A DNA stretch of 64,000 bases, taken from positions 2,790,001-2,854,000 of the forward strand of contig ML978123.1 of NCBI GenBank assembly GCA_010015805.1. Direction: 5' to 3'. Of this stretch, positions 9,370 to 61,910 are shown one piece after another; the first letter of the stretch is position 1; every line of letters begins with the position of its first letter. This stretch comes from Rhizodiscina lignyota (taxonomy: Eukaryota > Ascomycota > Dothideomycetes > Aulographales > Rhizodiscinaceae). The notes below the pieces were generated by a model. That model saw only the letters and a list, made by a program, of their open reading frames with translations. It was not told where the DNA came from and made no database searches. The translations under genes and the position numbers were made by a program.

Positions 9370-11704
9370 TCATATCGGTGTCCGCTTCCGGACTGGAGTC
9401 TCCCTGGGTTCCCAAGCCGGTGGTCGTCGAGGCGCTTGTGCCAATAGAGAGCGTCTGCGTTGCTCTGCCTCTTGGATGATGTCTGCAGATAAGCGTATAC
9501 TCGGCGCAAGGTGTGAGTATCGGACGATTTCGTTAATCACATCGTAGATCATCGAATCGACCGTATGAGCGGGTGGTAGAAGAGCAGAGAGGGAAGGCGA
9601 CATTGTAGCGCCCATTATGAGTAGCGTCTGAGATACCATCCTTGAAGAAGCATTAGCTCCGCGGAACGAGGCCTTACATACCGAAGCGTGTACTTACGAG
9701 AGTGCTCCTTGCCAGAGATATGGGAGGTGACCAGCTTGATGAGCCTGGATGTTTTCCAATTGGCGAATGCACGCTTCAAGGCATTTTCTGCAGTTCTCCT
9801 GTACGGAAGGATCCTGAGCCGCGGATTCATCCTTCAAAACGGCGAGTATATACGGTCGATAGATAATAGTGCGGCATGCAAAGAATCGGAGTCGCAGGAC
9901 CGTTTGGACGGGGTCGGACAGCGGAACAAGAGTATGTGGAAATTGTATTGGTAGAGGAAGGCTGTCATACCACTGGTTCAGTTGAAAGTCGAGTTCTGCA
10001 ACGACAGCGTCCAAGGACGGAGGAATCCCAGAAGACGGTGTTGTCTTGGTGTAGAGCAAATGGCTTACTCGATTGAGTAGCCGACGTAAGGCAATCTCAG
10101 CAAGGAAGTACCAAAGATCGTCTTTGCCTACGGCCTCTTCTCCTTCGCCTTCAAAGCCTCCTGGCAGTCCCACGGATTCTTCAAACTGGACGATTCCCGA
10201 GTGTGGTAGGTCCAGCTCAGCAAGAAGGTCACTGACAAATGAGTGAGCAGAGATGAAGTCATTAATCTGATTGGCTACGTACCTCTCGAATAGCAGTGCA
10301 TTCCAATAGACGCGCTCACACAGCTCTTTCGAGTGTGCTGGTAGTCTCCCTGGAGCACTCAGTAGAAGTTGCAGCTTCATGCTCGCATTTGCCAGCAATG
10401 TCCAAGCTTCAAGGGGTCGGACTATGTAGAAGAGGTAAGCAGCTGCAAGTATGTAGCACTGTGCAGATATCATGTTGTTGCGTGCCATCAGGCTCGGCAG
10501 CAGTGACCATGCACTCGCGAAGAAATTGTACCCAGGTGGCCCAGCCTCAAGCGAACACTGTGTAATGCTAGGAGCGGAGCCAGCAGCGCCGAGCGCCAGA
10601 ACGAGCAGAGCAATGCAGCTTTCCGGGCCATCACGGAACTGCCGCGTAAGCGCTGTTCTATAGAATCCAGCCCAGTTGTACGGATTGACGCACGCATACC
10701 AGACATTAACGCGTTCGAAAAATGCTTGGACGTAAATCGCTGCGTTTGTGAGATCCAAAGGATATGCAGGAGTGTAATCGAGGCCCTCACGTGCCATCTC
10801 AACTTGGAGCAGAGTCTGCGGATCATATGGTTTTGATATCAGATCCCGTATTTTTGGCCATTGCAACAGATGAAAAGCTGGTGTGGTGTGTCTCTTCGGC
10901 ATGGTTGAGATATTGGATGGCTCTCGAGACCACGTGCCAAGTCCATTTACAGGAATCATGTCGATCAAGCCAGCACTGCTGGCGCGGCGCGCTCTCATCT
11001 CCGGTCTCGCAAACTGAGGCGTGTTGACCTCACTGCTCGCTGTTGGACTTCTAGCCGGAGGCGAATGGGCAATGAAACCAGCGCGAACGGGTTGAGTGAG
11101 CACATTGGTCTGCAGCAAGCCCTCGATGCGGGCCAGGTGCTCAAGGATAAGTTTGTCACCGGCATCGAGCTTTATTCCAGGCTCCCGGTAAACGCACTCT
11201 GCCTGGAGCTCAGTGCACAGTTTACATTTTGGGCGGTTACCGTCGCATCGCGACTTTCGCGATCGACATATCTCACACTGGAGGTGGGATTTAGCATGTG
11301 ACGAGCAGAATTTGCGTGAAACGTCTCACCGCAATAGTCGCCCTACGGCGAGGGTAATCGATCGTGTCGGTAGCAGAGCGCTTTCTCGAGTTTCCCGGCG
11401 TCTCTGTGCCAGCCGTCGGACCGTTGTGACGGGGCGGCGAGACGCCGTTGGATGCTTCTCGGTCAGTCGAAGACTGTGACATGGTGCGCGACCGTTTCGG
11501 CGGGCTGCCGTTCCTCACGGGGCCATCGTCGGCCAGCATACTCGACTTCCGCCGCAGTCGAGGAGTCGCGTCGAAGGAGTTCCTGGCGGCAGCTGGAGGA
11601 GGGGAAGTGTTGAAGTCGCGAGGAGCTCGGCGAAAATACGTAACGACGCGCGATGATACTCGATTCTCAAGGTTCCTTTCTGGGGAAAGCGGCACGGCCG
11701 CCAT
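9370..11704 (-). CDS. Zn2Cys6 fungal-specific transcription factor
   Basis: Three exons on the minus strand (11704-11330, 11277-9698, 9640-9370) join in frame to 741 aa. Introns are 52 and 57 nt with GTGAGA/CAG and GTAAGT/AAG boundaries. The first 125 residues are Ser/Pro/Arg-rich and disordered. The binuclear zinc cluster starts right after intron 1, with the spacing CEICRSRKSRCDGNRPKC, then a linker and short coiled coil (DKLILEHLARIEGLLQ). This is the usual Gal4-type DNA-binding and dimerisation arrangement. The middle section resembles the fungal transcription-factor middle homology region (FFERVNVWYACVNP). It should act in the nucleus as a sequence-specific regulator. The target is unknown and no metabolic cluster lies beside it. 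The upstream gap to the next gene is unusually long. Confidence 0.9.
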
Positions 11705-14302: not shown

Positions 14303-14360
14303 GCAACGCAGAAATGAGAAAGGTTGAAAGGAGCACACCTCCCCGTCTCAATTAGCAGGC

Positions 14361-14591
14361 ACCCGGGTGACAAAATAGTTGAGTCCGCTTCAACTGAGGC
14401 TATAGTAAGAACAACAAGTTTTATTCTTCAGCACGAGTGAGAGCATCTCTAAAAGCTCGATTAAATATATACTAGAGCGTATTTATCTAAAACACGCAGC
14501 GTTAGTGTGTATAATCTATATTAACTAGCGACGGTATACATCCTCGCGGTTCGACACATTACAGCCATAACTCAACTTTTTTGTCACCCAC
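14361..14591. mobile_element. MITE-like element, copy B, with 9-bp target duplication
   Basis: The element begins ACCCGGGTGACAAAATAG and ends CTTTTTTGTCACCCAC, forming inverted termini. It is flanked by an exact 9-bp direct repeat, TTAGCAGGC, at 14352-14360 and 14592-14600. The interior matches the copy at 7588-7796 and lacks an ORF. An exact 9-bp duplication with long inverted termini points to Mutator-like transposition, and the intact duplication suggests this copy is younger than copy A. Confidence 0.85.
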
Positions 14592-14600
14592 TTAGCAGGC

Positions 14601-36760: not shown

Positions 36761-38150
36761 ATGGCGTTCCTTTTCCGCAATAAGACCAACTCTCCTCCAC
36801 AACTGGCAAAGCATTTGAGCGAGTCTTTGCAAAAGCTGCTAGCAGAGGAGCAGCCTTCACAAAAGGTTCAACTGCACCTTGCTGATCATCCCGTCCGTCA
36901 AGATGGTCTGACTGATAGCTACAGGCTAACGAATTGTGCGCCAATTATCTATCTCAGATGAAGATATTGATGCAAGGGACACCAGGTTGGTTATAAATGA
37001 TCCATGCTTCTCGACTAGATACTTACTTTATTTCAGAAATACAAGTCGAGCCGGAGCAAGTCTTCCAGTGTATCCAAGCGCTTGTACAAGAAAACCTCAT
37101 CCGTACTCTCGCCAGAAACATCCACCGCCTCCCTTTCGAAGCGCGTAAAGACACTCAGTTCATCTTCGGCACCGCCTTCCGCTACAAGCACCCTGGCAGC
37201 GTCACACCAGAGCCTGATGTCCTCCGCTTCATCCTGGAGCAACAACCCGATGTAATAATTGCTCTCTGCAATGGGTATATGCATCGCGAGAGTGCGTCGC
37301 CATGCGGAAGCATACTTCGGGAAGCTCTTAAGCACGAGGCGGTCGCTCATCTGATATTGTACGATGGACAAGCAGAGGACGAGCGCATGCTGAATCTAAG
37401 TTCCGAGGTGACGAGTGAGCCAGCAAAGAGGAACGGAGTGTTCTGGAGATTCTTTGATTGGATTGATAAGAGCGCATTCGAAATAAGTTCAGATGCGTTC
37501 AATACCTTCAGAGTAGGCGCATGTCCGGACGTGGCCCTTTGCAGAGAACTGACACACATAGGATATCCTCACGAAGCATAGAGACCTCGTTCTGGAATTT
37601 CTCGACTTGAACTTTGATGACTTTTTCCGGACATACCATTACAAACTCATCGCATCTGACAACTATGTTACTAAGCGCCAGTCTATCAAGCTGCTCGGAG
37701 AAATTCTACTCGAGCGCGCCTACTACAAGATCATGTCGCGCTATGTCGCCGAACCTGAGCACCTCAAGATCATCATGAATCTCATGCGCGACAAGGCGGG
37801 AATGATCAAGTTCGAATCGTTTCACGTGTTTAAAGTAAGCCGGATTTCTTCATCTTATCCCTTCTCTTGATTAAATTGATATTTGGCATCATCTTACCAC
37901 GTTATAGATCTTCGTTGCGAATCCAAAAAAGTCTGTTGGAGTCCAAAAGATCCTGATACTCAACCGCCAGGCGCTCTTGAAGTATCTAACTACCTTTTGC
38001 GAGGACAAGAACGAGGACGTCCAGTTTACGGATGAGAAAGGATACCTGATACAACAACTGCGAAATATGCCAGAGCGGCCGGTACCGCCTCCCACGCCGG
38101 CACCTTCGGCAGCCCCAGCAGCTCCCGCTCCTCAGGCTGTCCAAAGATGA
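36761..38150 (+). CDS. hymA: HymA/Mo25-like scaffold protein
   Basis: Five exons (36761-36865, 36925-36985, 37037-37512, 37562-37834, 37908-38150) join in phase to 385 aa. The first donor is a weak GTTCAA, but the join restores the family sequence SQMKILMQGT. Mo25 signatures run the full length: ENLIRTLARNIHRLPFEARK, NGVFWRFFDWIDKSAFEI, DAFNTFRDILTKHRDLV, NYVTKRQSIKLLGEILLER, MIKFESFHVFKIFVANPKKS and LRNMPERP. Mo25 proteins are helical-repeat scaffolds that activate GCK/STE20-type kinases in the morphogenesis (RAM/MOR) pathway. Aspergillus hymA is needed for conidiophore development. The C-terminus ends in a Pro/Ala-rich tail. Confidence 0.96.
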
Positions 38151-38439: not shown

Positions 38440-39320
38440 TCCTTATCTCTTCTCAAGGATGACGAAGTAGCTGACTGCCGGGCAAGCTGTAACGCCAAAA
38501 GGCGACCAGTTCTTTCACTTCAAGATACACAAGACGATTCCTGAAAGCTCAATTATACGTCCTTTGGAGTATATATCTCCAACTTGTACGGGCAGATTGA
38601 GTCTTCCTTTCGTGTAGTACACTTCTCCGGTTCCCAAGTTGCGTGTAGCCGTCGAACTTCAACTCGATTTTAAGTAGGTGCTCAAATTGTTACTTACACA
38701 CATAGATCGAATATTGCTCCGTGTCTTATCCCTTCTCGAGGACGACAGAACCCTTGGCCACCAGCCAAGCTGTAATGCCCAAGGTCGAGCAGTTCCTGCA
38801 CTTCAAGGCACGTGATAGTATATCTGAAAGCTTGGTCATACGTTCTTTAGAGTGCATAGCTTCAACTTGTACATGCAAGTTGAGTATTGCTTTGGTTCAA
38901 TACACTTATCAGACTCTCAGCTTGCGTGTGGTTGTCGAGCTTCAATTCGGTTGTATGCAGGCGTTCAAGTTACACTATACACACATGTCGAGTATTACAT
39001 TCATTTAATACGCTTCTCCGATTCCTAGCTTGCCTGTAGGCGTCGAGCTTCAATTCGACTTTATGCAGGTACTCAACTTATTACTTACACACATAGATCG
39101 AGTATAGCCACGTTGTCTTTCTTGAGCGAGCTCTCCATTGGTCCACAGGTTTCTGCCTTGTCGGTGCGCAGCTCTCAATCCATCTCGGACATATGGAGAC
39201 ACAGAATAGCTGGTCGTCGGGCAAACTGTAATGGCAAAGGATGAGCAATTATTGTACTTCAAGGTACGCGAGACTATCTCTGAAAGCCCAGTTACATGTT
39301 CTTCGGAGTAGCTGTACAAA
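38440..39320. repeat. Degenerate tandem array, ~283-bp unit
   Basis: Two unit types alternate. One starts CTCAAGGATGACGAAG (38452) and CTCGAGGACGACAG (38735), then in both copies reads CAAGCTGTAA, CACTTCAAG and CTGAAAGC; a third, poorer copy is near 39200-39310. The other holds ACACTT-TC, TTGCGTGT, GTCGA-CTTCAA-TCG and ACACACA near 38617, 38901 and 39005. The spacing gives a period of 281-284 bp. The first unit matches the end of the MITE at 46219-46506 in the opposite orientation, so the array probably grew from such an element. Confidence 0.6.
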
Positions 39321-39442
39321 TAGTACACCGATGAAAGATCTGTATGCTTTGTTGGTTGCACAGGCTACACGCTGTTGCTGTGCAGTGTCTCGGAAACTAC
39401 GGCCAACTCTTTTGGCACTCTCGAGCTCTTATATAATCCCAA

Positions 39443-39712
39443 TTAACTGAAGGAGGACTGTAATGATGAGTTTTGGTCGTAAAAGCGAATGAGAGCACCT
39501 CCGAAAGCTCCGTTTAATATGTTCCACACAGTATGTAGTAACAAGGTGCAGTTTCTGCGTGTGTGGCCTGTATTGACTGACGAGTTTGTACATCCATCAT
39601 ACAGGCAGTCCCGTATGCTGTAGGTATTAGTTGTTTGGCCCCCTGACCGGATATAGCGCCAACATGTCTGCCTCGGTGCTCGTTCTCCTGAGGGTGACAA
39701 ATAGCTATCCTT
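39443..39712. mobile_element. Degenerate MITE relative of copies A and B
   Basis: Blocks such as GAGAGCACCTCCGAAAGCTC and TTTAATAT align with the interior of the elements at 7588 and 14361. A GGGTGACAAATAG terminus occurs at about 39693-39705, but its orientation does not pair cleanly with the left end, so this may be two overlapping remnants. No ORF. Confidence 0.45.
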
Positions 39713-41679: not shown

Positions 41680-44050
41680 GATTCTGACATAAATAAAATG
41701 TACGATCTTCCAGTATCACCAGTTGTAACGTCACCGGTCGCGCGAGTGTGGTTTCGATCCCAGTCAATACAAGCCTTCAGGTCATTGCTCAATGGCGCCA
41801 GCGAGCCGAAACAGACTTCTCTTTCTGGTGCAACTATGTGATCCAAGCGGATTGAATAGAGATTCGATGAGAAGGTGACTCTGATGGGAGATCGAAGTAT
41901 GTTCTGCATTTCGTCCTAAAAAGCTCCGTTTGCCGGACAATGTCAGGAGGCGTCTCCACGAAGAGAGCCAATACGAGAGACATCATTGATTTAAAACTCA
42001 ATGAGAGAGTGATAGTAGAGTGATAGAAGCTTTAACAGCGTCTCAGTCTATAGAAAGAGCGGTCGTCTGGGTTTAGACATGCGAAGTTGCGTCTGAGAGA
42101 AGGACGAATAGACTGTTTGTACTCTAGGTGTCCATAGCAATGCATAAAAGAATATCGTCTTTAAGATATGGTGAATCAAAAGCCAGCAATAAAATTATCC
42201 CGCAATATGTAGCAAATTTGCAGTTGCATGCTTCACATGGCCGGATCTGAAGTCGATGGACGGGACGGCAGAAGCCGACCCTCAGCGTAAGAAGTCTTGG
42301 GGCTGAAATCTGTAGATGCTGGGCCTGGTAAGAATGGGCGACCGCCTTATCAAGATATTGAAATTAAATTCGAGTGGTATTCTCTTGCATTTTGTATTCA
42401 AATTCCAGAGAAACATGTGTGACAGCTGTGCGAGAGCCGTCAGTTCCGATTTCGTTGGGGTGCCCCCCTTTTTCGCAGGGATATAGCGTTGAGACCTCGC
42501 TCCGCTTTGACAAATATATACATTAATCAAATTTCAGTCGCCAACAATTTGGGCGTGTGGTTTAGGTAAAACCTCTGATACCTTTATTATTCGACCAACA
42601 AATTAATTCTCTACAGTGGTATAATACGTAAAAAACCCTGTTCAATCCTCGAGTTCAGCAAAATCTAACCTCAAAACAGCTCTTTAGCATAGAGGTGGTG
42701 TAAGTTTGCGCTCTAATCATGTCTAGTAATTTATTACTAACCATACTTACAGCCTGGGTGTATGTTCCCTTATCAATCCGATCATTTCAACTTCTAATAA
42801 TATCAACAGTCGATTCCCAGCACGTCCATCACATTTTTTTTTGACAAATTTTTTCCCTCACTACTCTTGCTTTATTTTACTAGAGTCGTCACCAAAGCTA
42901 TGAAGTGAGATATAATTCTAATTAAGGTCACTATGGTGACCAACTTTTGATCCTCGGCTGCATGTAGCAGCTTAATTTTCAACTTTCATATGCGTGGAGA
43001 GGCCGCTGATATCGATACAGAGAGCTGAATGGAGATTTATCATTCAAGCAGGCCTACTTCTAATCCCATTTTTGTTTATATACCTTATGTGCACACGGCC
43101 TCGGATGCAAAGGAGTTTGATTCAATGTCACGTGGCGTTGCTTAGTACCAATTATGTGCCACATCCAACACTTGCGATCCTGACCTCCATCAACCCGCCA
43201 CCAACTTTTCGCATCCAGAATGGGAACAAGCGCTTTGCGTTAAGTTACCGATTTCGTCATACAGCAATAGCGGCCTGTTCAACTCCGATCTCTCGCTGTT
43301 AAACCAATTCCAAGCACCTTTTTGAGCATGATCGACACGCCAACTCCGTCGCGCCTTGAACGCCACGCTTGCGTTGTGTTTCCTCAGATCCCCCAAATCC
43401 ACCAAGAAAAATTCGAAACTCCAAATTTCAATGTTGACATACATAGTGTACACAAGCAGTCCCAGCTCCAACGAATAGTGTCCCACGGAAAGGAGACAGT
43501 CAAACAAGTGCGAAATGGTGAGGGCTCATCTTAGCTTCCCCGCTGCTCGAGCGGGTACTAGTCTCCGGCACCGTGCGTGAAATCGCTAGAGGTGATGAGG
43601 TTTTGCCGGAGTAGTAAGTCGGTAGGTTGAGGTGGTGTATGATTGCTGTTGTGGCGTCTTGAAAATTCAAGCCCAGATGCTTTCTATCACGTGAGTTTAA
43701 TATCGATAAGAAATAGGGCTGTGTTCGCTTGGCAGGACTAGCAGGGTTGGACGTTGAGAAGGGGCTGGGGCTGGGGTTCATTACCTCAGCAACTTTCAGT
43801 TCCTCCTTCTTGACACGTTCCTGACGTCCACAACGCGTTTCGACGACCGTCACATCGCCGCCCCGTTCCTCGCCCTTCCCTCGATCTGTTAACCGCTATG
43901 AAGCTGATACGTTCTGGCGACGACTCTGAAACTTGCTCGTTTGCGTCGTTTGTGTCATTTGCTAAGGGACAGTGCCAGAGAAGAGCGCGGCGGCGGGGCG
44001 ATGGCAGTACTATATGGTCGAACAGGAAGAGACGTTCATATCTGGTCAAG
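41680..44050. other. AT-rich intergenic DNA, no convincing gene
   Basis: Between the minisatellites. Poly-T tracts at about 42834-42853 and frequent TpA steps suggest decayed repeat sequence. Minus-strand frames at 43190-43507 and 43500-43853 (117 aa, Ser/Pro-rich start) have no motif and no neighbour support. Confidence 0.45.
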
Positions 44051-44055
44051 AGACG

Positions 44056-44279
44056 GATGAAGCCAGACTCTGGAGCAGGAGGTTCTGAATGCTCGAGTCG
44101 GAAGCAGGATGTTCTGAATGCTTGAATCCGATGCAGAAGATTCTGGTGGATACCGGGTTCCGGAGCAGGATGTTCTGAACGCTTGAATCCAGAGCAGGAG
44201 AACAGGAAGGCTCTGATCGAATCCAGAATCTGGAGCAAGAGAGCAAGAGGGTTCTGATCGAATCCAGAATCCAGAGCAA
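44056..44279. repeat. ~30-bp minisatellite
   Basis: Recurring GGAGCAGGA-GTTCTGAA-GCTTGAATCC blocks, about seven degenerate copies, with the last units reading TCTGATCGAATCCAGAATC twice. It falls in an open minus-strand frame only because the unit is free of stops. I do not call a protein. Confidence 0.65.
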
Positions 44280-44289
44280 TTAGAAGCAA

Positions 44290-45010
44290 AGTCGGTAGCC
44301 TTTTTTTTTCCTTTTTCCCTTTTTCTTCTTTCTTTTTAAATAAAATATTTTCGAGAAAGTGATGGTTGCACTAAATCCCAGTTAGGCATTAACGGAAGGA
44401 AAGTCTTCCATCAGTAGCTCTTAGGCCTTTAGATACTCACTTACATTTAACACTCAGAGCTCTCCTTCTCCTTCTTCTTCTGAGGCTTTAGAGGGGCTAT
44501 ATTGACATGGCCATTAGATATGAATTCAACTCGTACCGACTACGAAGCAACCGGGCTGAAGTAGAAAACTCAAGTTGTGATACGACAAACTGAAAATTAA
44601 ACTCTCGAAAAGTGATCCTATTACGAAAAGCTTATTTTATTCTTCCTCCTTCTATTCCTTTCCCTTCTCTTCGTCCTCCTTCTCCGCCCCCGCCTTCTAC
44701 TTTTCCTTCTTAGCTACGAAGGAGCTAGTTTCCTACAAGTGAATAGTATAGAGAGCTACTCTATTATAGTTACCTTTAGCACTTCTAAGAAGCTTCTATA
44801 TATTAGTAAGTTTGTATTCGAGGTTATTTAGAAGTAGTTTATTAAGCCTGTCTTAGAAGATTTACTTCTTATTATCCCGGAAAAAAGATACTATTATAAG
44901 TCTTATACCCTTACTAGACACGAGGTCCTTCGTATCGTCCCTACCCACTTAGCTATATAGGAGACTGTCGGCGGAGCGTGCGTCGGCGTAGCAGTAGTAG
45001 TAGCAGGGAT
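44290..45010. repeat. TpA-rich, CpA-poor tract, probable RIP-mutated repeat relic
   Basis: After a poly-pyrimidine run at 44302-44340 the sequence becomes rich in TA steps and poor in CA/TG (for example ATATATTAGTAAG, ATTATAAGTCTTATA), most clearly between 44740 and 44960. That skew is the footprint of repeat-induced point mutation (CpA to TpA). The original element cannot be identified. The tract is bounded on the right by a short GTAGTAGTAG repeat. Confidence 0.5.
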
Positions 45011-45129: not shown

Positions 45130-45261
45130 AACATTAGGAATTGGGCAGAGGTCGCTATGGAAGATTTCCAATGAAGCTGTATTATTCAGAGACACAAGAT
45201 AGTGCTGTGGATTCTTAGATTCCCCAAGTCTCCTCTACAGCTTACTCACATTCACACCGAG
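45130..45261. repeat. Left copy of ~132-bp direct repeat flanking the GIY-YIG locus
   Basis: Starts AACATTAGGAATTGGGCAGA and ends ATTCACACCGAG. The matching copy is at 49584-49716 in the same orientation, about 84% identical by eye. Most differences are C/T or G/A transitions. Confidence 0.7.
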
Positions 45262-45534: not shown

Positions 45535-48183
45535 ATGTCGACCACTACTGGTGGGCAGAGCACTGGGTCTGGGCCTCAATACCCGATTTCCTCGACATGC
45601 AGAATGAATGCAAGTCGCAAACTCCTAGCCGTCAAGCCGCAACAGGAGGTCACTCTTCATACAGGAGAAGTCGTGGTCGTGAAGACTGTCCAGAAGCTGG
45701 GCAAGGACACCGTCTATGGTGTCCGATTTGTACGACCGCACGTGAGGGGTCCGCAAGTGTGGGATGTCGTCCTCAAGCCCGATGAAATCACCCTCAGCGG
45801 CAAACGATTGGGAATCGACCTCCAAGTAACAGTCGAGGATGATGCCAGGTCTGCATTAGCACAATTGCAAATCTCAACCCAATTCAGCGCCCTCGGGAAC
45901 AGCAAACTCGGCCGAGCAGTCACAGGCGTGCTGAATGCCATCCAAGCAGGCTCCCAAGGTATACTCGACTTCCTTCCACAATCCTGGTATACGCACGCAG
46001 CACACGCTGGCGTGGCTGGGGCTAACCTTGACAACATTGCGAGCCAATTCCTCAGAGGGGTGGATCAGGCTGGACTGACACAGGTTCTGAATCAAGATAA
46101 CTTCACATGGGTAGACTTGTGCAAGAATGGAAGAGAGATCAATGCAGTCAAGGAGGAGGGCAATAAGGGCATCTACCTACGTTTCTACTTCAACGACAAG
46201 GTAAGTATCCGCTATATCCTCGAGGGTGACAAAAATATCGGCCGCATCTTCAAGACAATGGACAGCCGTGATGTACAGCCTCTACGTATAATCGAATACA
46301 ACATCCACACACATGTGGGCTGAGTCTCCACTCGCTCTACAACCGGTAAAGCATACAATTTTTTAATGGTACGTTGTTGTTACATACGCTCTCAAGGACA
46401 TCGAACTAAGCTTTCAGAGACAGTCCCGCTTATCTTGAAGTGCAAAACCTGCTTGGCATTTGGCGTTACAGCTTGCTAGGCAGACAGATAATTTGTCACC
46501 CTCGAGCCGCGCAGCGCGCCTGCGTGCTCGGCAGCAAAGCCCTGGCACGAATTTTGCTGACAGTTTGTGTCATCACCAGAACGATAAAGCTCTCACATAT
46601 GTTGGCGCAACCAACAATTTCTCTCGGCGATGGAAGCAACATGAAGACTGCCTCAGGGACAAAAATGACCACTCCAATCACTATCGAAAAGCGCGCCCGA
46701 GAAATGACCGCCACTCTATCGTCCTTTGTCGACTTGACGACCTCAAAGATCACGGGACGGACGCGACATTGCGTCACATATTCGAACAGCTTGCCCTGAT
46801 GCTACTGCAGTCCTACGACCCAGCTGTGTTAGCTATGAAAGACCGGCCAGAGGAGACTTCTGTCGACGATAACAACCCAATGGTGTCCATCATGAATGTT
46901 ATTGACGATAAGACAACAGCAGAAGCTTTTGATGAAACTGCAAAACAAGCCGCGATGAAGTCGCAATGGGTCGGCGGTTGCTACCGAAGCAGCTTCAAAG
47001 GCGTGGGGCTGAACTGGGCCAGCCCTCTCTCGGATCAGCTGAACTACGAGAAGACGATTTGGGTAAAACAGCAGCAACACATCGATGGGCTAGGCTTGGC
47101 TACGACATATCGACGAGGCTCTCCGTTTAGAGTGACACAACAGCAGGACGGGAACCAGTTGCTGTTGTTCCGCATGTCAAACGGTGGACGTACCATGGGG
47201 TGCACAGCTGGCCCGACAAAAGATGGCGTTCCTCCGGCTGGAACAATGGTCCAAGTTGTATGGGAAGTCGCTCCAGAAGGAGTGATTCATCCATATTCCT
47301 ATGCACGTCTACCCGCAGTGGGTGCATTCGAAGACTGGAAGCGTGCTATGTCTCTGGCTATTCGGCTCGAATGGAAGGACCTGGAGTCGGGATCCTGGCA
47401 GTATTACTACTGTCAGCGAACAAATGTTCTGGAACTGGAGAGACTAGATGCCCCTCACAAGAACAGGCATGGGGCATTGATTGGATACATGATCGCCACT
47501 GGAGTTCTTCGATTCCTCGAGCGCAGAGTACTGCCCGGAAACCCCCGAGCCGACGACTATGTTTTTGGACTTGCGCGAGTGAAAGAGGCTAAATACGATT
47601 TCTACAAGCAGACACTTACATTCTCCGCTGATCTACCTGCGTCTACGCAACTATGGAACAACAACCGACGGTCTCTGAATGACATCGTTAACGACATGAA
47701 GGCTCGGGGTCTCATGAACGTGAATGTACCGTTTGGCCAACAAACTGGCATGGTTGCTGGCCGCGCTCCAGGTAAGTACATGTTGCTCCTCTTTTGACAA
47801 TGGATATTGCTTCGCCGGTACTGACATATTTTCTCAGGTCAAGGTGGCCAAAAAAGACTCAAATGCGATACATGTTACCTTTCTCCGACTCAGCCACGAC
47901 CAGAGTGTAAGAAGTATGAGCAACCGGGGTTCAAGAATTGTATCAGGTATTTGATCACCGTCAGCGCATTCGCAAACACTAGAGACACTGGAGGCTCACG
48001 CAAAATAGATGTCAAGAGCTGTATGGTCGCCCATGCAGCTGGACTAGCAATTCTCTAATTGATGAGAATGGCGATAACGACTCTAAGGCCCGATATGCCG
48101 CACTCATATACCAGCCCATGATGTCCTCGTCTATTGGAGGCATGGAGGACCCCAACATTCAGATTTGGTCACCGCTTGCATGA
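45535..48183 (+). CDS. GIY-YIG nuclease-domain protein with C-terminal six-Cys motif, 713 aa
   Basis: Exons 45535-46200, 46580-47771, 47838-47946 and 48009-48183 join in phase without a stop (713 aa). All introns are GT-AG (379, 66 and 62 nt). Residues about 40-90 look like a small beta-barrel (VTLHTGEVVVVKTVQKLG). The nuclease core is split by intron 1: KGIYLRFYFNDK is joined to NDKALTYVGATNNFSRRWKQ. This gives the two catalytic tyrosines (GIY, YVG), the conserved Arg and, downstream, a Glu in IFEQLALMLL. A middle region of ~300 residues is unrecognised. The last exons encode CDTCYLSPTQPRPECKK...CIRCQELYGRPCSW, a C-x2-C-x10-C-x10-C-x2-C-x7-C pattern likely to bind zinc. Slx1 has a GIY-YIG plus a Cys-rich domain but is much shorter and ordered differently. 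It sits in a repeat island between direct repeats. Confidence 0.75.
46219..46506. mobile_element. MITE-like element inside intron 1 of the GIY-YIG gene
   Basis: The 15-bp termini are exact inverted repeats: CTCGAGGGTGACAAA (46219-46233) and TTTGTCACCCTCGAG (46492-46506). The element fills most of the 379-nt intron and leaves the GTAAGT donor and CAG acceptor outside it. The inner parts match the element at 48199-48443 (GGCCGCA-CTTTCAAGACA) and, reversed, the array at 38440-39320. No ORF. No clear target duplication. Confidence 0.78.
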
Positions 48184-48198
48184 ATATGTGGTAGTGTG

Positions 48199-48443
48199 GC
48201 AAGATGGTGACAAGTATTTTGGCCGCAGCTTTCAAGACACTGAACAGCATCAGTGTATAGCCTCTAGAGATCACATAGGGTACGGGATTTTCAACAGTTT
48301 GCTATTTATCAATGCACTCCAGAGAAGATATAACTGACCCTTCAGAGATAGTTTCGATTGCCCTGAGGTGTAAGAGCTATTAACCCTTGGGTGTTACGGC
48401 CTGGAGGCCCTGGCCAGCGACCAACTATTTCGTCACTCTCGAG
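48199..48443. mobile_element. Second MITE-like copy just after the GIY-YIG gene stop
   Basis: Begins with AAGATGGTGACAAG and ends CTATTTCGTCACTCTCGAG. The inner blocks TTTTGGCCGCAG, TTCAAGACACTGAACAGC and TATAGCCTCTA align with the intron copy in the same orientation. It starts about 16 nt after the TGA at 48181-48183. More diverged than the intron copy. Confidence 0.62.
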
Positions 48444-48889
48444 TGACCACTCAAAGCAGCGCGTATCCTATGTTTTTCCCCCCTTAATTGTTCGATATGA
48501 ACACTGTTTTTTGCATGAAATGTACTCTCTCACTCTCTGGTTTCTGGGCTTGTTAGAAATCAATCTTCTGTCGCTCCTTTACGGTATGATGTTCCGATTT
48601 GTTTCATGGGTTTCTCATTACAAAGGATTTACGACCAAAATGCATCAATATGCAATGGGTACAGATGAAAACATAGTATCAAGTATATCAATAAAACCTG
48701 TTGATGTGTTATCAAGTCAATTGCCGAACGTCTTTACTTCTTGGAACCGAACTGGATTGCCTGAGTTGGAGCGAGCCCGGACCATGCGCCATTTCACCAA
48801 CGAGGTCCAACAGTAACAGTTGAACAGGCGAAGTTGCATAACGGTAGCGGGCCTTACTGCTGAGAGAGTCTTAACACAAAGCTAGTAAT

Positions 48890-48960
48890 CATAACAGGCT
48901 TAAAGCATATTAAGTGCGATGCATGTTACGCTTGGTAGCGCCAATCATCTGTACTGCATA
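48890..48960 (+). pseudogene. Decayed copy of the six-Cys exon of the GIY-YIG gene
   Basis: The stretch AAGTGCGATGCATGTTACGC near 48914 aligns with the start of the Cys exon (AAATGCGATACATGTTACCT near 47863), including the preceding GGC/AAAG context. It would encode KCDACYA, followed by an in-frame stop, so it is not functional. It suggests an earlier duplication of this gene or its C-terminal domain. Confidence 0.45.
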
Positions 48961-49342
48961 GAGGTCCCCACCACACGAAATCCAATCTGTCAATCAGAAT
49001 GCCGGTCTAATGCTCTGTCTATAAGTGGATGTATATATAGCGTCAGTGGTCAAGTTTGCAATTCTAAATGAATCTTATCGTAAATTAGAGTTGTGTCTAA
49101 TCGCCCTTCGGTAGCTCCTCTGCAGAAGCATCCTTGCGGGCAAACATGACTATCCGTTCGGAGTAGACTAGGGGACACGAGGTGCGACCAACAAATGCAC
49201 GACTGATATTCCCCGACGTTACGAGAGATCAAACATCGGATCGATGTAGCTTTTGTCGCCTCTAGCGCGTTGGCAGTAAGCATGCCCATTCGTCTTTAGC
49301 TAGTATCCGGCGAGCAAACGACACCAATAACGTCGCCCTTTT

Positions 49343-49510
49343 CCTGTAATAACGAGAAGCAAATCTTCTAAGGCAGGCCAGATAAGCCACTCCCCGACAG
49401 CCTCGATTCTCGAATGCAACTTCACACCGCTTAAAGGAAGCTTGTTACATAGAAGTGCCGGGCAAATTTAAATAGGGTGGCTCCGCAGAACTGTTCACCC
49501 GCTGGAACCG
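49343..49510. repeat. Second copy of the dispersed repeat found in kinase intron 1
   Basis: Shares GGCAGGCC, CTCCC, CTCGA, GGAAGCTT, GTGGCTCCG and CTGTTCACCCGC in the same order and spacing with 1730-1865. Identity is roughly 65-70% by eye. Confidence 0.55.
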
Positions 49511-49583
49511 AGGTCATTGGTAGAGTTCACCCATCCATCATTCGAACCTGACGATTCGCGTGGTCCCAGTCTTCGAAGCCGCC

Positions 49584-49716
49584 AACGTTAGGAAGTGGAC
49601 AGAGGCCGCTATGGAAGATTTCAAATGAAGTTATATCATTCAGAAAATACAGGATAGTGCTATAGATTCTTAGATTCCCGAAACTCTCATCTACTGCTTA
49701 CTTACATTCACACCGA
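49584..49716. repeat. Right copy of the ~132-bp direct repeat
   Basis: AACGTTAGGAAGTGGACAGA at the left end and ATTCACACCGAG at the right end correspond to 45130-45261. This copy has A or T at several sites where the left copy has G or C, as expected if it was hit by RIP. Confidence 0.7.
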
Positions 49717-50052
49717 GCTTCTCGGCGGTGGTATGTAACAAAGCCTTCATTGCCATCCCCCGCTCAAACGCCGACATTATCTGTACTTACTGTAGAGACT
49801 GCACAACCAATTTAACATAGCTTGCATGCTGACCGCTATCTCACTCACTTTACGGGCTGGTCCACATTGCTCCGAACGGCCTTATAATTCAGTTTACGCC
49901 AAACAGAAGAGATTGATATTTTGGTCGGACTTGGGCTGTCTCAGAGAAACATCCTTACGGAGCACCAGAATCTTCAAATAAGGCCATTTTCTTACAGGAT
50001 TAATGATATGATTTGCTACAAACGCATACACTGTATTCATATAGTCTATTCA

Positions 50053-51746
50053 TCAGTCGCCACCACTGATCTTCATCAACCATGCATTGCGGGACACCGC
50101 ACCTCTAATCCTCTTTCCAAAGACATACATGGGAATCGTAAGCGCTGAAATTGCCAAGTTCAAAATCGCAAGAGTCGTAAAGACTTTGACGGGGCCAGCC
50201 CGTACAAACCACGTCGGGACGAACATCTGACCGAAGAAGTTGAACACAGCCCTGAACAAGCTGGTCGTAACAAACGCCTCAGTCGAGCTCCTCTGCTGCG
50301 TGTCGAAGATGTAGTTGTAGCTAGCAGTAGCGGCAAATGGAGAGCCAGCACTAACTAGCAAGCTAAGCCCAACCAGCTTCACAACAGACGAACCGGCTGC
50401 AAATGCCGGACCGAGCAACCAGAAGCCCACGGTTGAGAGGATGACGGCCGGGATCATGAGCAGCAGACGGAATTCGGGCTCATAGATGCCACCGTTCCTC
50501 CGCGCCATGAACTTGATGAGCCAGTCGCTCAAGAGGCCCGCAACCACGGAGGAAATGAATCCGACACCGCTTCCGGGGAGTGTTATATACGCAAGCTGGT
50601 CCGGAGGGAGGCTGTAAGGCGGATAAGCGAGGACCTCCAGACTGACGGTGCCCAATATCGTGACCCATGTTGAGAAGGCACCGTAAACGATTGTACAAAA
50701 CACGACGGACGGGAACAAGACGAGCGGGAATGGCTGAACGAGTGCCAAGAAGAAGCTTCGGTCCGTCAATCGACCTTGGAAAATTCTAAGTTGCTCCCAT
50801 GTGGTTTTTGAGCGCTCCGTAGGGTGCAGTGGAGTCGTTGATTGTGCCGATTCTGAGTTCGTAGTCGTTGTTTCGACACTTCGTTCCTTTTCAAGATCCG
50901 AGGTCGAACCCGACGATTGCGATTGATTGTCCTTTATGGCCTTAGAAGCAGGTCTAGTGTAAGTCGTCTCGAAGACAAAGAAGTAGATCAGGACCATGAT
51001 CGGGGCCCAAACAGCGAAGCTAATAATGAAGGTGTAATTGACACCCAGGCGACTAATGATGTTTCCAGATATAATATGACTGAGCGGAATTAGTGCCAGA
51101 ACGGCATATACAGAAAGAAGAAGTACCTTGCATCAGTTCCAATCACACCCACCATAGAGGCGAGCGCAAAAAGAGTCCCTCGTTCATGGACAAACGTCAT
51201 GTCTGAGACCACCGGTGCTATGAGAAGCTCGACAGGCGCCGATGCGAAACCACTGAATATCAGCACTACCTGATAGTACGGCAAGCTATTCGCAAAGTAT
51301 CCCGCGAGCATCGTAAAGAAGATGACAATGCTTGCAATCACAAATTGCACTCGCTTGCCCCATACCGCCGCGGTCGCTGAAGCAACGAAGAGCCCGATAA
51401 CCTGCGCGGCGATAGTGGGCGGGCTCAAATCCCTCACAATGGTTGCAAAATCCGTTCCGAACTGGACTGCGAGGATCTGGAGGCCTGTGTTGAGCATTTG
51501 ATTGATGCCCACGATCGCAATGGCGGCCACAAGCATAATCAAGAAGATGGTGCCTTTTCTTGTGTATGACCAGTTCAAGGGATCGTTGATCGAGTCGGAA
51601 GGTTGGGGTTGCAGGATGGTTTGTCCTTTTCGTTTGAGATGTTGAAGTTCTGCAGATTCGACATCCTGCGTCGACTCTTTGGAGCCCAGTGGAACAGTCC
51701 CTGAGGGACGAGGTGTTCGTCTATCCTCCAATATTCCCCAGCCCAT
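50053..51746 (-). CDS. MFS transporter, DHA1-like
   Basis: Exons 51746-51127 and 51079-50053 join in phase (548 aa). The intron is 47 nt, GTACTT to CAG. The N-terminal lead GWGILEDRRTPRPSGTVPL followed by DPLNWSYTRKG is typical of fungal DHA1 drug:proton antiporters. About twelve hydrophobic segments follow, with a central cytosolic loop of about 70 polar residues (SQSSGSTSDLEKERS) between segments 6 and 7. After the splice, SHIISGNIISRLGVNYTFII matches the usual end of the first half. It is probably a plasma-membrane exporter. The substrate is unknown. It borders the repeat island on its 3' side. Confidence 0.92.
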
Positions 51747-53065
51747 GTTGAGGATGCACGATTATTTAGACGATTATTTAGACAATTAAAGATTTTGCGT
51801 TTCTCAGAACCAGCTGGAAGGGAATAAAAATCGTGATAAGGATTCGTTTCTTCGTTAAGGACAGTCGGTCATTCTAGATTTGTAGGGTAAGGTCGACTAG
51901 AAAGCACCTTTTTCGATTGATCGCCATTTGGAGAGGCTCCTTTGAAGCATGAATCTAGAGACTTATAAGGCCAACATTGGAACGGCGTCTCCTAGCCTGA
52001 ATCGTGCGAACCAACTTGGTACCCTGGCTTCCTCCGTTCATTCGAAGTCGGTGTCGTGCAAATCGACACCTAAATGAACATAGGGCCGAGATCTGCACGG
52101 TACACTCAGGGGTTGCGGCTCAGTAATCCCTGGAGACCAGGAGTCATAGCCACAATTGCGAGGAGCTCAGCCGCAGCTGCGAAATCGCTAGCAATGAACT
52201 TTTGCAACATCGAGGCAGACAGGCTGTGCTTATGTATCAATGAGTAGTTGCTCCAGGAGCAGCCCTGGCGGTTGAGTGGTTGGTCCTCGCCCCTTTGCAT
52301 GGACTAAGGGACCCTAAAGATTTCGTAGTTTTCCTACCGCAAGCAATTAGATCCTTCAAGGTGTTGATCCCACGCCAAGCACGGGGATGGGTTGGTCGTG
52401 GGTTGGTGCGCCTGCGTCAATGGCTTGGTCAATGCAAAATGACGTCCGGAAATTGTTGGGTCACAACCTCAGTTCCAAGGTTCACAGTGAACCACCATCC
52501 ATTGCGTAGACTGTAGAAGGGATGAGAGACTGCATATGTGGTAAAGGTACAGGTGTGTCACAGCCATCTATTCTATCGTATGTGATGCGCAAGCTCTCTC
52601 TTCGAGTATCCTACTTGCAAGGGCGGGTCTCTAGTGAGATTCGTTTGGACGGAGAAATTCCGCTCTTACTACTGGTACTGCGTGCCGTCTGTCAAATTCT
52701 CTTCTATATCTCTAGCCATACTCATACTGAAAAGAAGTATTGCAATATAATAATACATATGCTCTCTTTAACTCCTTTAAGCGAACAATGCCTCTGTAGC
52801 AGGCTCCGGAGGGGTGCGCAAATCCTGTCATCCTGAAGGGTACTCCGTATTCAAGTTGCATTTCGAAACTTCACCAACGACCATTACCGATTCAGAGCAA
52901 TCCTTGTTGAGTGGATATAGTCCATAATTTCAAGAATTTCGTCTGTCATATCGGTTAAGTCGTGGCCTAGTTAATGCTCTGCTCCTTGAAGCTGATGAGC
53001 TTACATGGTCTTATCATCTTCCCCATTGTGTTGCCAGGCTTATACACGCAGATGTTCCTTTCGAT
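51747..53065. other. Intergenic, no supported gene
   Basis: Upstream of the MFS gene. The plus frames at 52280-52516 and 52522-52836 have no motif. No repeat was matched to other parts of the window. Confidence 0.45.
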
Positions 53066-60236: not shown

Positions 60237-61910
60237 ATGCCGGATCTATCGTTTACCGGCCCAGGCGAAGTTCACGCCCCATATTTAGACGTCGATCAAA
60301 TCGAGAAAGCGTTGAAAGAGCATGGGTCCTGTGTAAGCAGCATACAGCTCGCATCTGTTCACGTATATTCGCCACTAATGTAAAGTAGATTGACACACTC
60401 TCACATTTCCTTCCCGGAAAGGTCTTCACGAAGAATAAGCCGAGCTACAATGAGTACCTTGACACATTCTGGTTGGGACCTGCAAGGGAGATCTTTCCGC
60501 GATGCGTCGTCATTCCATCAAATACATCAGACGTGTCCAAGGCCATATCGGTTCTCAGCTCAGCATTAAAGTTAGGTATTGATTGCAAATTCGCAATCAG
60601 ATCTGGCAATGCTGCCGCTTTTGCGAACCTTTCGAATATCGATGACGGCATTGTCATCTGGCTCAAAGATCTTAAAGAGCTTGATCTGGCGGAAGACCGA
60701 TCAGTCATCCGCGTTGGTCCGGGCAATAGCGCTGGAGATGTGTACGGGAAGCTTGACCCAATGGATTTGACAGCAGTGCTGGGTCTCCACTCAATGTTGG
60801 GAGTTTCTGGCCTCGTGCTTGGAGGTCCGTCCTGTAAACTTTCCTGAAATAACTCTTGGAGATGCTAAATATCGGCAACAGGCGGATGGTCGTCCATCCT
60901 GAGTCCTCAATATGGGTTAGCATGTGACAATGTTTTGAATTTCGAGGTATTTCCAACACCGCAACATCGTTTGTCCCGCTAAATTAGCCCAGGTCGTCCT
61001 CTCATCCGGAGCAGTGGTTAACGTAAACGCAACTTCGAATCCAGATCTCTTCCGAGCTCTCAAAGGCGGAGCGAGCAATTTCGGTATTGTGACGCGCTTC
61101 GATCTGGCAGTGATCAAGTTGGGGTCATTCTCAGGAGGGCAGATCTTCGCAGATCTCTCGAAACGCCAGGAGATTTTCAGGTTTGCCGAAAATTACATGA
61201 AGGCCGATGACTATACTCCTCAAGCGTCGATGATTATGAATCTCGGATACATGGCGGGAATGGGATGGGGCATGTTCTACTTCCCGACATATATTGGACC
61301 TGAAGAGAACCCCTCCATCCTCGCTCCAGTACTCAAGATGAACGACGTGAAGAGCACATTTCGAGTCTCCCATACACGAGAATTTACCGACCAGCTAGAT
61401 CAGATGATACCTCCTGGCCTCCGTTCCACGGTCAGTACATTCACTTTCAGCCTTAACGCAGAGTTCATGGAAGTTTACTTCCAAATGGCCAAGGAGATGG
61501 TGGATGAACTCAAGGATATTTTCCCCGGATTTGCTGCGGCCGTCGCGTTCCATCCATTTCCAAAACAAGCGTTCAGTCAGAGCAAAAAGTCGGGCGGAAA
61601 TTCGCTCGGCCTCTCCGAAGAAGACGGCGATATTTGCAAAACGTTCGCATATATGATGTGGGACAGCGCCAAGGACGATGAAAAGGTCAAGGCCGCCATG
61701 AAGGACTTGATTGAACGCGGAAAGACAGAGGCGGTGAGGAGGGGCCTCCTCAAAGACTATGTGCCAATTAGCTACGCGGCTCCATGGCAAGATGTTTTTG
61801 GAGGCTACGGCAAAGAGAATCTGGAAGCGATGAGACAGGCCAGCAAAAAGTATGATCCATTACAGCTCTTCCAGTTAGCTGTTCCAGGAGGTTGGAAGCT
61901 CTCGAAGTAG
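60237..61910 (+). CDS. FAD-linked oxidoreductase (PCMH/BBE-like)
   Basis: Exons 60237-60332, 60389-60824, 60882-60946 and 60993-61910 sum to 504 aa. The FAD-binding segments are FPRCVVIPSNTSDVSKAISV, then AIRSGNAAAFANLSNIDDGI, where most relatives have RSGGH, and GLACDNVLNFEVV, then LFRALKGGASNFGIVTRFDL. The His that usually links covalently to FAD is missing, so the cofactor may be held non-covalently or through another residue. There is no clear signal peptide, whereas many family members are secreted. The C-terminal substrate domain ends YDPLQLFQLAVPGGWKLSK, the usual family tail. Such enzymes often tailor secondary metabolites or oxidise sugars. The substrate is unknown. Confidence 0.92.

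What the first reader, a model, noticed from the sequence alone, without database searches (positions are those of the whole stretch)
45535..48183. Large GIY-YIG nuclease-like protein with a C-terminal six-Cys motif, not matching a named family
The spliced model rebuilds a complete GIY...YVG core with the conserved Arg and Glu. An N-terminal barrel-like segment comes before it, and a 300-residue unknown domain plus a C-x2-C-x10-C-x10-C-x2-C-x7-C zinc-type motif come after. The architecture differs from Slx1, UvrC and mitochondrial homing enzymes. The gene is intact over 713 codons although it sits in decayed repeats, which suggests selection or recent arrival. It may be a selfish nuclease or a domesticated transposon/genome-defence nuclease.
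Basis: partly seen in the sequence, partly recalled or inferred. Interest (0 to 1): 0.85.

Follow-up and report, generated by a model that had tools for sequence, protein, structure and literature searches.

The report
Fungal GIY-YIG nuclease gene, transposon-bearing intron
An apparently intact nuclear gene of a probable filamentous fungus encodes a likely DNA-cutting enzyme of the GIY-YIG type attached to unfamiliar domains, and its first intron carries a small transposon-like repeat; it is a real but probably modest novelty whose job in the cell is unknown.

Summary
Exons 45535-46200, 46580-47771, 47838-47946 and 48009-48183 give one 713-codon frame with a GIY-YIG domain just above Pfam's cut-off (23.9 against 22.6 bits). 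No other domain reached a cut-off. Intron 1 has a GTAAGT donor, CTGAC 17 nt before the acceptor end, and CAG. The six-Cys motif is less sure: it needs intron 3, whose splice signals are weak.

Relatives lie 15 nt after the stop codon, at 38.4-39.4 kb, and at 7.6 and 14.4 kb. I found no transposase domain and no terminal repeats bounding the gene, so the repeats look like insertions around a host gene.

Best reading: a nuclear-encoded GIY-YIG DNA endonuclease with an atypical Zn-cluster-like C-terminus; its role (genome defence, repair or selfish) is open. No relative was found, but no fungal genome could be searched, so orphan status is untested. The most novel reading left open: a TIR element created intron 1, whose splice flanks carry a 7-of-9 duplication. 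Interest 0.4.

The parts
45535..46200 (+). exon 1: ATG, N-terminal region without a recognised domain, ends with GIY and NDK
   Evidence: no Pfam family at its cut-off (10); best coding score in its own frame (36)
46201..46579 (+). intron 1 (379 nt, GTAAGT...CTGAC...CAG)
   Evidence: the frame closes at 46321-46323 if it is not spliced
46219..46506 (-). MITE-like element inside intron 1, perfect 15-bp terminal inverted repeats CTCGAGGGTGACAAA
   Evidence: found by a profile built from four other copies, E 1.3e-30 and 7.7e-8
46192..46200 (+). AACGACAAG, left half of a 7-of-9 duplication at the splice flanks
   Evidence: 6 of 3,630 donor/acceptor-like pairs reach 7 of 9
46580..46588 (+). AACGATAAA, right half of that duplication; protein reads NDKNDK
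46580..47771 (+). exon 2: YVG, Arg and Glu candidate, then about 300 residues without a known domain
47772..47837 (+). intron 2 (66 nt, GTAAGT...CTGAC...CAG)
47838..47946 (+). exon 3: first four Cys of the motif; its own frame is not the best-scoring one
47947..48008 (+). intron 3 (62 nt, GTATTT...TAG; weak signals)
48009..48183 (+). exon 4: last two Cys and stop codon
48199..48443 (-). second MITE-like copy, 15 nt after the stop codon
45130..45261 (+). direct repeat (134 alignment columns) in the 5' region; other copy 49584-49717, 85% identical

Best explanation
A nuclear gene of a probable filamentous ascomycete encodes a 713-residue GIY-YIG endonuclease. The GIY-YIG core (about residues 210-300) would cut or nick DNA with one metal-dependent active site built from the two Tyr, Arg239 and Glu291. 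The C-terminal six-Cys segment, a zinc-cluster-like knot, and the middle domain would bring it to its DNA target. The gene is an ordinary three-intron host gene in a repeat-bearing stretch between conserved genes; MITE-like elements have landed in its first intron and just beyond its stop codon without breaking the frame. Shown: frame, splice signals, GIY-YIG match, repeat family. Inferred: catalysis, zinc, DNA targeting. Role: I think a fast-evolving accessory nuclease (genome defence or repair) more likely than a mobile element, but this last step is weakly supported.
For: Intact 713-codon frame and GIY-YIG match. Arg aligned to the Arg of I-TevI that is mutated in 1ln0. A PHROGs homing-endonuclease family matched at E 1.5e-4. 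Consensus splice signals for introns 1 and 2. Coding score 0.150 bits/codon, within the range of 11 reference frames of the window, 0.128-0.265, which trained the score. Exons 1 and 2 look unlike RIP-mutated DNA: TpA/ApT 0.53 and 0.60, against 1.10 and 1.23 at 38.4-39.8 and 44.0-45.1 kb (12 stretches examined). Cys clustering. Sub-threshold hint of zinc in the C-terminal segment: DksA/TraR zinc-finger model, E 0.024, 15 bits against a cut-off of 96.
Against: The Pfam score is only 1.3 bits above the cut-off and covers 34 of 78 model columns. The I-TevI match has E 0.061, and an unrelated protease inhibitor follows at E 0.1. The GIY-to-YVG spacing is 14, and with 11 the Pfam match extends over GIY, so the domain as encoded is slightly off the norm. 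A motif-E Asn was not identified. Intron 3, and so two of the six Cys, is uncertain. No relatives, so no test of selection. Structure models are useless.
Confidence: 0.6

Rival explanations
1. The gene belongs to a selfish element: a nuclear homing-type or transposon nuclease whose copies decayed around it.
For: The core's best matches are homing endonucleases; the 5'-region repeat recurs at 49584-49717; two short downstream stretches resemble the protein: GLKHIKCDACY at 48897-48929 (0 of 200 shuffles as good) and LPNVGGFEDWDHA at 49595-49557 (1 of 200), out of 12 frames compared.
Against: No terminal repeats with target duplication bound the gene; no transposase or RT domain in the protein or the neighbouring ORFs scanned; the two fragments are only 11 and 13 residues, with tblastn E 2.2 and 0.99 over the window, where three places without any link to the gene score E 0.34, 0.75 and 0.75; four DNA-level comparisons of the downstream flank did not exceed 60 shuffles each. 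One of two upstream comparisons did (minus strand, 51.5 against a maximum of 46.5), but it pairs mostly 5' non-coding sequence with the upstream flank.
Confidence: 0.2
2. A conserved host DNA-repair nuclease, a diverged Slx1- or ANKLE1-like enzyme.
For: Eukaryotic nuclear GIY-YIG families exist: Slx1, and COG3680 with ankyrin and LEM domains (PMC1564403, passages); one fungal paper lists an slx1 orthologue as a housekeeping gene (PMC5635595, passage). That ANKLE1 belongs to COG3680 is recalled.
Against: No RING, ankyrin or LEM match in the 713-aa protein up to E 10 (exon 1 alone gives a zf-RING_12 hit of 15 bits, cut-off 25); no Slx1 chain among the 6 PDB sequences matched up to E 10.
Confidence: 0.1
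3. A pseudogene or chimera: exon 1 and exon 2 are unrelated fragments and the join is fortuitous.
For: A repeat separates them; weak intron 3 and exon 3; GIY-to-YVG spacing of 14.
Against: The join restores a GIY...YVG hairpin in frame with consensus donor, branch site and acceptor; exons 1 and 2 score as coding.
Confidence: 0.1

Closest known systems
I-TevI and homing endonucleases of the GIY-YIG superfamily (PF01541; phrog_7168)
   Same: YVG to H stretch aligned, including the Arg that is mutated in 1ln0
   Different: No NUMOD or other homing-enzyme DNA-binding domain found; the gene has spliceosomal-type introns; no Rfam match, so no group I intron, in the window at gathering thresholds
Slx1
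   Same: eukaryotic nuclear GIY-YIG enzyme with a C-terminal Cys motif
   Different: Slx1 has a RING finger (PMC1564403 table, passages); here C-x2-C-x10-C-x10-C-x2-C-x7-C, no RING match in the whole protein or the C-terminal segment
Penelope-like retroelement endonuclease
   Same: GIY-YIG domain in a eukaryotic nuclear genome
   Different: No reverse transcriptase in the protein
Fungal Zn(2)-Cys(6) binuclear cluster (PF00172)
   Same: second half C-x2-C-x7-C, and six Cys spanning 36 residues
   Different: first half C-x2-C-x10-C instead of C-x2-C-x6-C (canonical spacing recalled); no PF00172 match, while a true one elsewhere in this window scores 34.8 bits
Introners / introner-like elements
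   Same: intron made largely of a repeat with copies elsewhere; duplication at the splice flanks; Gozashti et al. describe an introner that adds codons, partly through its target duplication (PMC9860276, passages)
   Different: The inverted ends lie 18 and 73 nt inside the splice sites; the other copies seen here are not known to be introns; the same paper reports ascomycete introners as having no TIRs or TSDs

Membership tests
GIY-YIG superfamily (PF01541) | profile score above the curated cut-off | tested here: met
   23.9 bits against 22.6, E 5.3e-5
GIY-YIG superfamily (PF01541) | GIY and YIG boxes, central Arg | tested here: met
   GIY 212, YVG 229, Arg aligned to I-TevI; the Pfam match to the encoded protein starts after GIY
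GIY-YIG superfamily (PF01541) | C-terminal catalytic Glu | tested here: inconclusive
   E291 present in FEQL but aligned by no tool
Slx1 | C-terminal RING finger | tested here: not met
   no RING match in the 713-aa protein or the C-terminal segment; one sub-threshold zf-RING_12 hit in exon 1 alone (15 bits, cut-off 25)
UvrC | UvrC C-terminal domains | tested here: not met
   only PF01541 found in the 713-aa protein
Penelope-like elements | reverse transcriptase fused to GIY-YIG | tested here: not met
   no RT domain
Homing endonuclease in a group I intron | lies in a group I intron, with NUMOD-type DNA-binding modules | tested here: not met
   no Rfam match in the window at gathering thresholds; no such Pfam match; NCBIfam group I intron endonuclease only 11.7 bits, cut-off 56.05
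Zn(2)-Cys(6) cluster (PF00172) | profile match | tested here: not met
   0 families for the 94-aa C-terminal segment; positive control met in the same window
MITE | short element, terminal inverted repeats, several copies | tested here: met
   lengths 213-288 for the five copies examined
MITE | target-site duplication | tested here: inconclusive
   exact 9-bp duplication at 1 of 5 copies (14360-14594, boundary shift of up to 8 nt allowed), partial at 7587-7799; none clear at the other three, the intron copy included
Introner | same element forms introns in several genes, and orthologues lack the intron | not testable with these tools
   no genome held

The most novel reading that the evidence does not exclude
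Intron 1 was created by insertion of a TIR-bearing DNA element into the GIY-YIG exon, duplicating 9 bp (AACGACAAG / AACGATAAA) and adding an NDK tripeptide to the hairpin loop of the nuclease. This would be intron gain by a cut-and-paste element in an ascomycete, where introners have been reported to lack TIRs and TSDs (PMC9860276, passages), inside a GIY-YIG family of new architecture.
Probability: 0.12. Interest if true: 0.75.

Novelty: new variant of a known kind. Interest (0 to 1): 0.4.

Why it matters
If fungal homologues confirm it, this is a nuclear GIY-YIG nuclease with partner domains unlike the families in the superfamily table whose passages I saw (PMC1564403). In the fungal papers I opened, the GIY-YIG genes named are mitochondrial homing enzymes (5 papers) or Slx1 (1 paper). 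The intron gives a clear test of transposon-driven intron gain: an orthologue without intron 1 should read one NDK, not two.

Tried and rejected
Structure prediction of exon 1 and exon 2 as single sequences gave mean pLDDT 34.7 and 31.7, so no fold search was run. Relatives: exon 2 in viral contigs, 10 pattern matches, 0 relatives; in genome contigs, 16, 0; exon 1 in viral contigs, 8, 0; in genome contigs, 80, 0. tblastn of exon 2 gave 35 phage records, best E 6, and 5 plasmid records, best E 3. PADLOC: 0 of 2 proteins matched. NCBIfam: 2 of 3 proteins had hits, both far below their cut-offs.

Considered and rejected: that the gene lies between the terminal repeats of one element. The alignment of the 85% direct repeat stops at both ends and one copy sits 273 nt upstream of the ATG; the inverted pair 44818-44885 / 49339-49406 is only 72% complementary. 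Not taken as the leading reading: that the whole 379-nt intron is one element. A profile from four other copies ends at 46218 and 46507 (envelopes), which favours a MITE nested in an older intron of about 91 nt. Short similarities outside the inverted ends were not consistent enough to use. As single-stranded DNA the intron folds on its inverted ends, z -2.74, which the inverted repeat alone explains.

Spacing test: with one NDK removed, Pfam rises from 26.4 to 27.8 bits and the match then includes GIY; phrog_3312 rises from 15.7 to 20.2 bits but phrog_7168 falls from 22.3 to 19.9. The result is mixed.

Literature: ten searches, seen as listings cut at 10 to 20 papers. Passages only were read in PMC4226871, PMC4469406, PMC5722872, PMC3192844 and PMC7014384 (mitochondrial GIY-YIG), PMC5635595 (Slx1), PMC9860276, PMC1564403, PMC10799480 (no GIY) and PMC4457414. 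No paper on such a nuclear fungal protein stood in the listings I saw; subscription journals are mostly not held.

Full report
What was checked. The finding proposes a four-exon gene at 45535-48183. Joining 45535-46200, 46580-47771, 47838-47946 and 48009-48183 gives 2,142 nt, 713 codons and a stop, without an internal stop. Of four acceptors tried for intron 3, those before 48009 and 48039 stay in frame; only the first completes the six-Cys motif. The long open frame in exon 2 is not chance: about 0.0007 open frames of 397 codons are expected over 128,000 starts.

Splice signals. Introns 1 and 2 both begin GTAAGT, have CTGAC 17 and 11 nt before the acceptor end, and end in CAG. Intron 3 begins GTATTT, ends in TAG and has no consensus branch site near the acceptor. 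Reading through intron 3 is open for 36 more codons with a coding score per codon similar to exon 4 (4.3 bits over 36 codons against 8.1 over 57). Exons 1, 2 and 4 score best in their own frame of six, exon 3 does not. So introns 1 and 2 are well supported by sequence, intron 3 only moderately, and with it the fifth and sixth Cys.

What the protein is. Pfam finds one family in the 713 residues, PF01541 GIY-YIG, at 23.9 bits against a cut-off of 22.6. The N-terminal 222 residues, the 297-residue middle part and the C-terminal 94 residues have no match at a cut-off; NCBIfam gives only sub-threshold hits, a group I intron endonuclease model for exon 2 (11.7 bits, cut-off 56.05) and a DksA/TraR zinc-finger model for the C-terminal segment (15 bits, cut-off 96); PADLOC gives none for the two exons submitted. 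In the Protein Data Bank sequences the best match of the GIY-YIG segment is I-TevI, E 0.061, followed by an unrelated protease inhibitor at E 0.1; the I-TevI alignment places the query Arg on the position that differs between 1mk0 (Arg) and 1ln0 (Ala); that this is catalytic Arg27 is recalled. PHROGs gives a homing-endonuclease family at E 1.5e-4. The conserved Glu is probably E291, by position only.

The Cys segment. C-x2-C-x10-C-x10-C-x2-C-x7-C lies at residues 629-665. Its second half is like a fungal Zn(2)-Cys(6) cluster, but the first spacing is 10 rather than 6 (canonical value recalled) and Pfam's model does not match it, although that model works on a true cluster at 9694-11322 in the same window. 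I treat it as zinc-cluster-like, not as a member.

The repeat in intron 1. The intron contains a perfect 15-bp inverted repeat, 46219-46233 and 46492-46506. A profile built from four other copies (48196-48449, 38452-38600, 38735-38900, 39190-39426) finds the intron copy at E 1.3e-30 and 7.7e-8, and weaker members at 14365-14590 (E 2.5e-8) and 7590-7697 (E 1.9e-4); these three were not in the profile. Matches to the 15-bp end with at most 3 mismatches number 11 in the window, two of them the intron copy itself from which the pattern was taken, and 0 in the reversed window; at 4 mismatches the reversed window has 11. The copy at 14360-14594 is flanked by an exact 9-bp duplication, TTAGCAGGC, with a boundary shift of a few bases; the one at 7587-7799 by a partial one; the other three examined, the intron copy included, by none that is clear. 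Nine base pairs would suit a Mutator-like element (recalled). This MITE-like family explains why intron 1 is 379 nt long while the others are 66 and 62, and part of why the gene looks embedded in decayed repeats.

Was the intron made by the element? The last nine exon-1 bases and the first nine exon-2 bases match at 7 of 9, giving NDKNDK in the protein; 6 of 3,630 donor/acceptor-like pairs in the window reach that. Removing one NDK extends the Pfam match to include GIY and raises it by 1.4 bits, but the PHROGs scores move in both directions. Against it, the element ends lie 18 and 73 nt inside the splice sites and the profile match stops there. A MITE nested in an older intron is more likely. 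A published survey describes an introner that adds codons, partly through its target duplication, and reports ascomycete introners as having no TIRs or TSDs (PMC9860276, passages), so a confirmed case here would be notable.

Surroundings. Conserved genes lie on both sides. To the left: two histidine kinases, a class I tRNA synthetase, a cation efflux protein, a glycosyl transferase and a Zn(2)-Cys(6) protein, and a Mo25-like protein at 36997-37578. To the right: an MFS-like frame at 51090-51758 (31.1 bits, just under its cut-off of 33.4), a peptidase S28, a carboxylesterase, an FAD-binding protein and a bZIP protein; the frame 60939-61907 had no match at E 1e-5 and neither had 50053-51129. Between 41330 and 50050 there are 21 ORFs of 85 aa or more; 14 were scanned whole or in part, the other 7 overlap the gene, and GIY-YIG is the only Pfam match at a cut-off. 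A direct repeat of about 134 bp at 45130-45261 recurs at 49584-49717 (85%). Two stretches of 11 and 13 codons downstream resemble the protein and may be remains of a second copy, but three unlinked places in the window score better by tblastn (E 0.34, 0.75, 0.75 against 0.99 and 2.2) and the downstream DNA comparisons gave no support. Exons 1 and 2 show no RIP-like signal; of 12 stretches examined, 44.0-45.1 kb shows it on both indices and 38.4-39.8 kb on TpA/ApT (1.10; other index 1.04), while the intron and 48184-48500 are intermediate (0.92 and 0.96).

Limits. No genome is held for this window. Copy number, orthology and selection could therefore not be tested.

Verdict. A real, apparently intact gene for a GIY-YIG nuclease with unassigned partner domains. 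Known fold, architecture outside the families I could test, function unproven; the transposon-bearing intron is an addition to the finding. Interest 0.4.

Noticed in passing
window 38442-39426 and 39687-39701: Cluster of three MITE-like copies, partly in tandem, plus one further inverted-end match, on the 3' side of a Mo25-like frame.
   Followed up: partly
window 14360-14594: Cleanest MITE-like copy: 235 bp with inverted ends and an exact 9-bp flanking duplication TTAGCAGGC.
   Followed up: partly
window 48897-48929 (+) and 49557-49595 (-): Short stretches resembling the gene's Cys segment (GLKHIKCDACY) and middle domain (LPNVGGFEDWDHA); possible remains of a second copy, weak.
   Followed up: partly
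window 45130-45261 and 49584-49717: Direct repeat, 85% identical, one copy in the gene's 5' region.
   Followed up: partly
window 1707-1870 and 44719-44883: Another dispersed repeat, inverted, 69% identical.
   Followed up: no
window 44040-44266: Imperfect tandem repeat with spacings of 29 to 41 nt.
   Followed up: no
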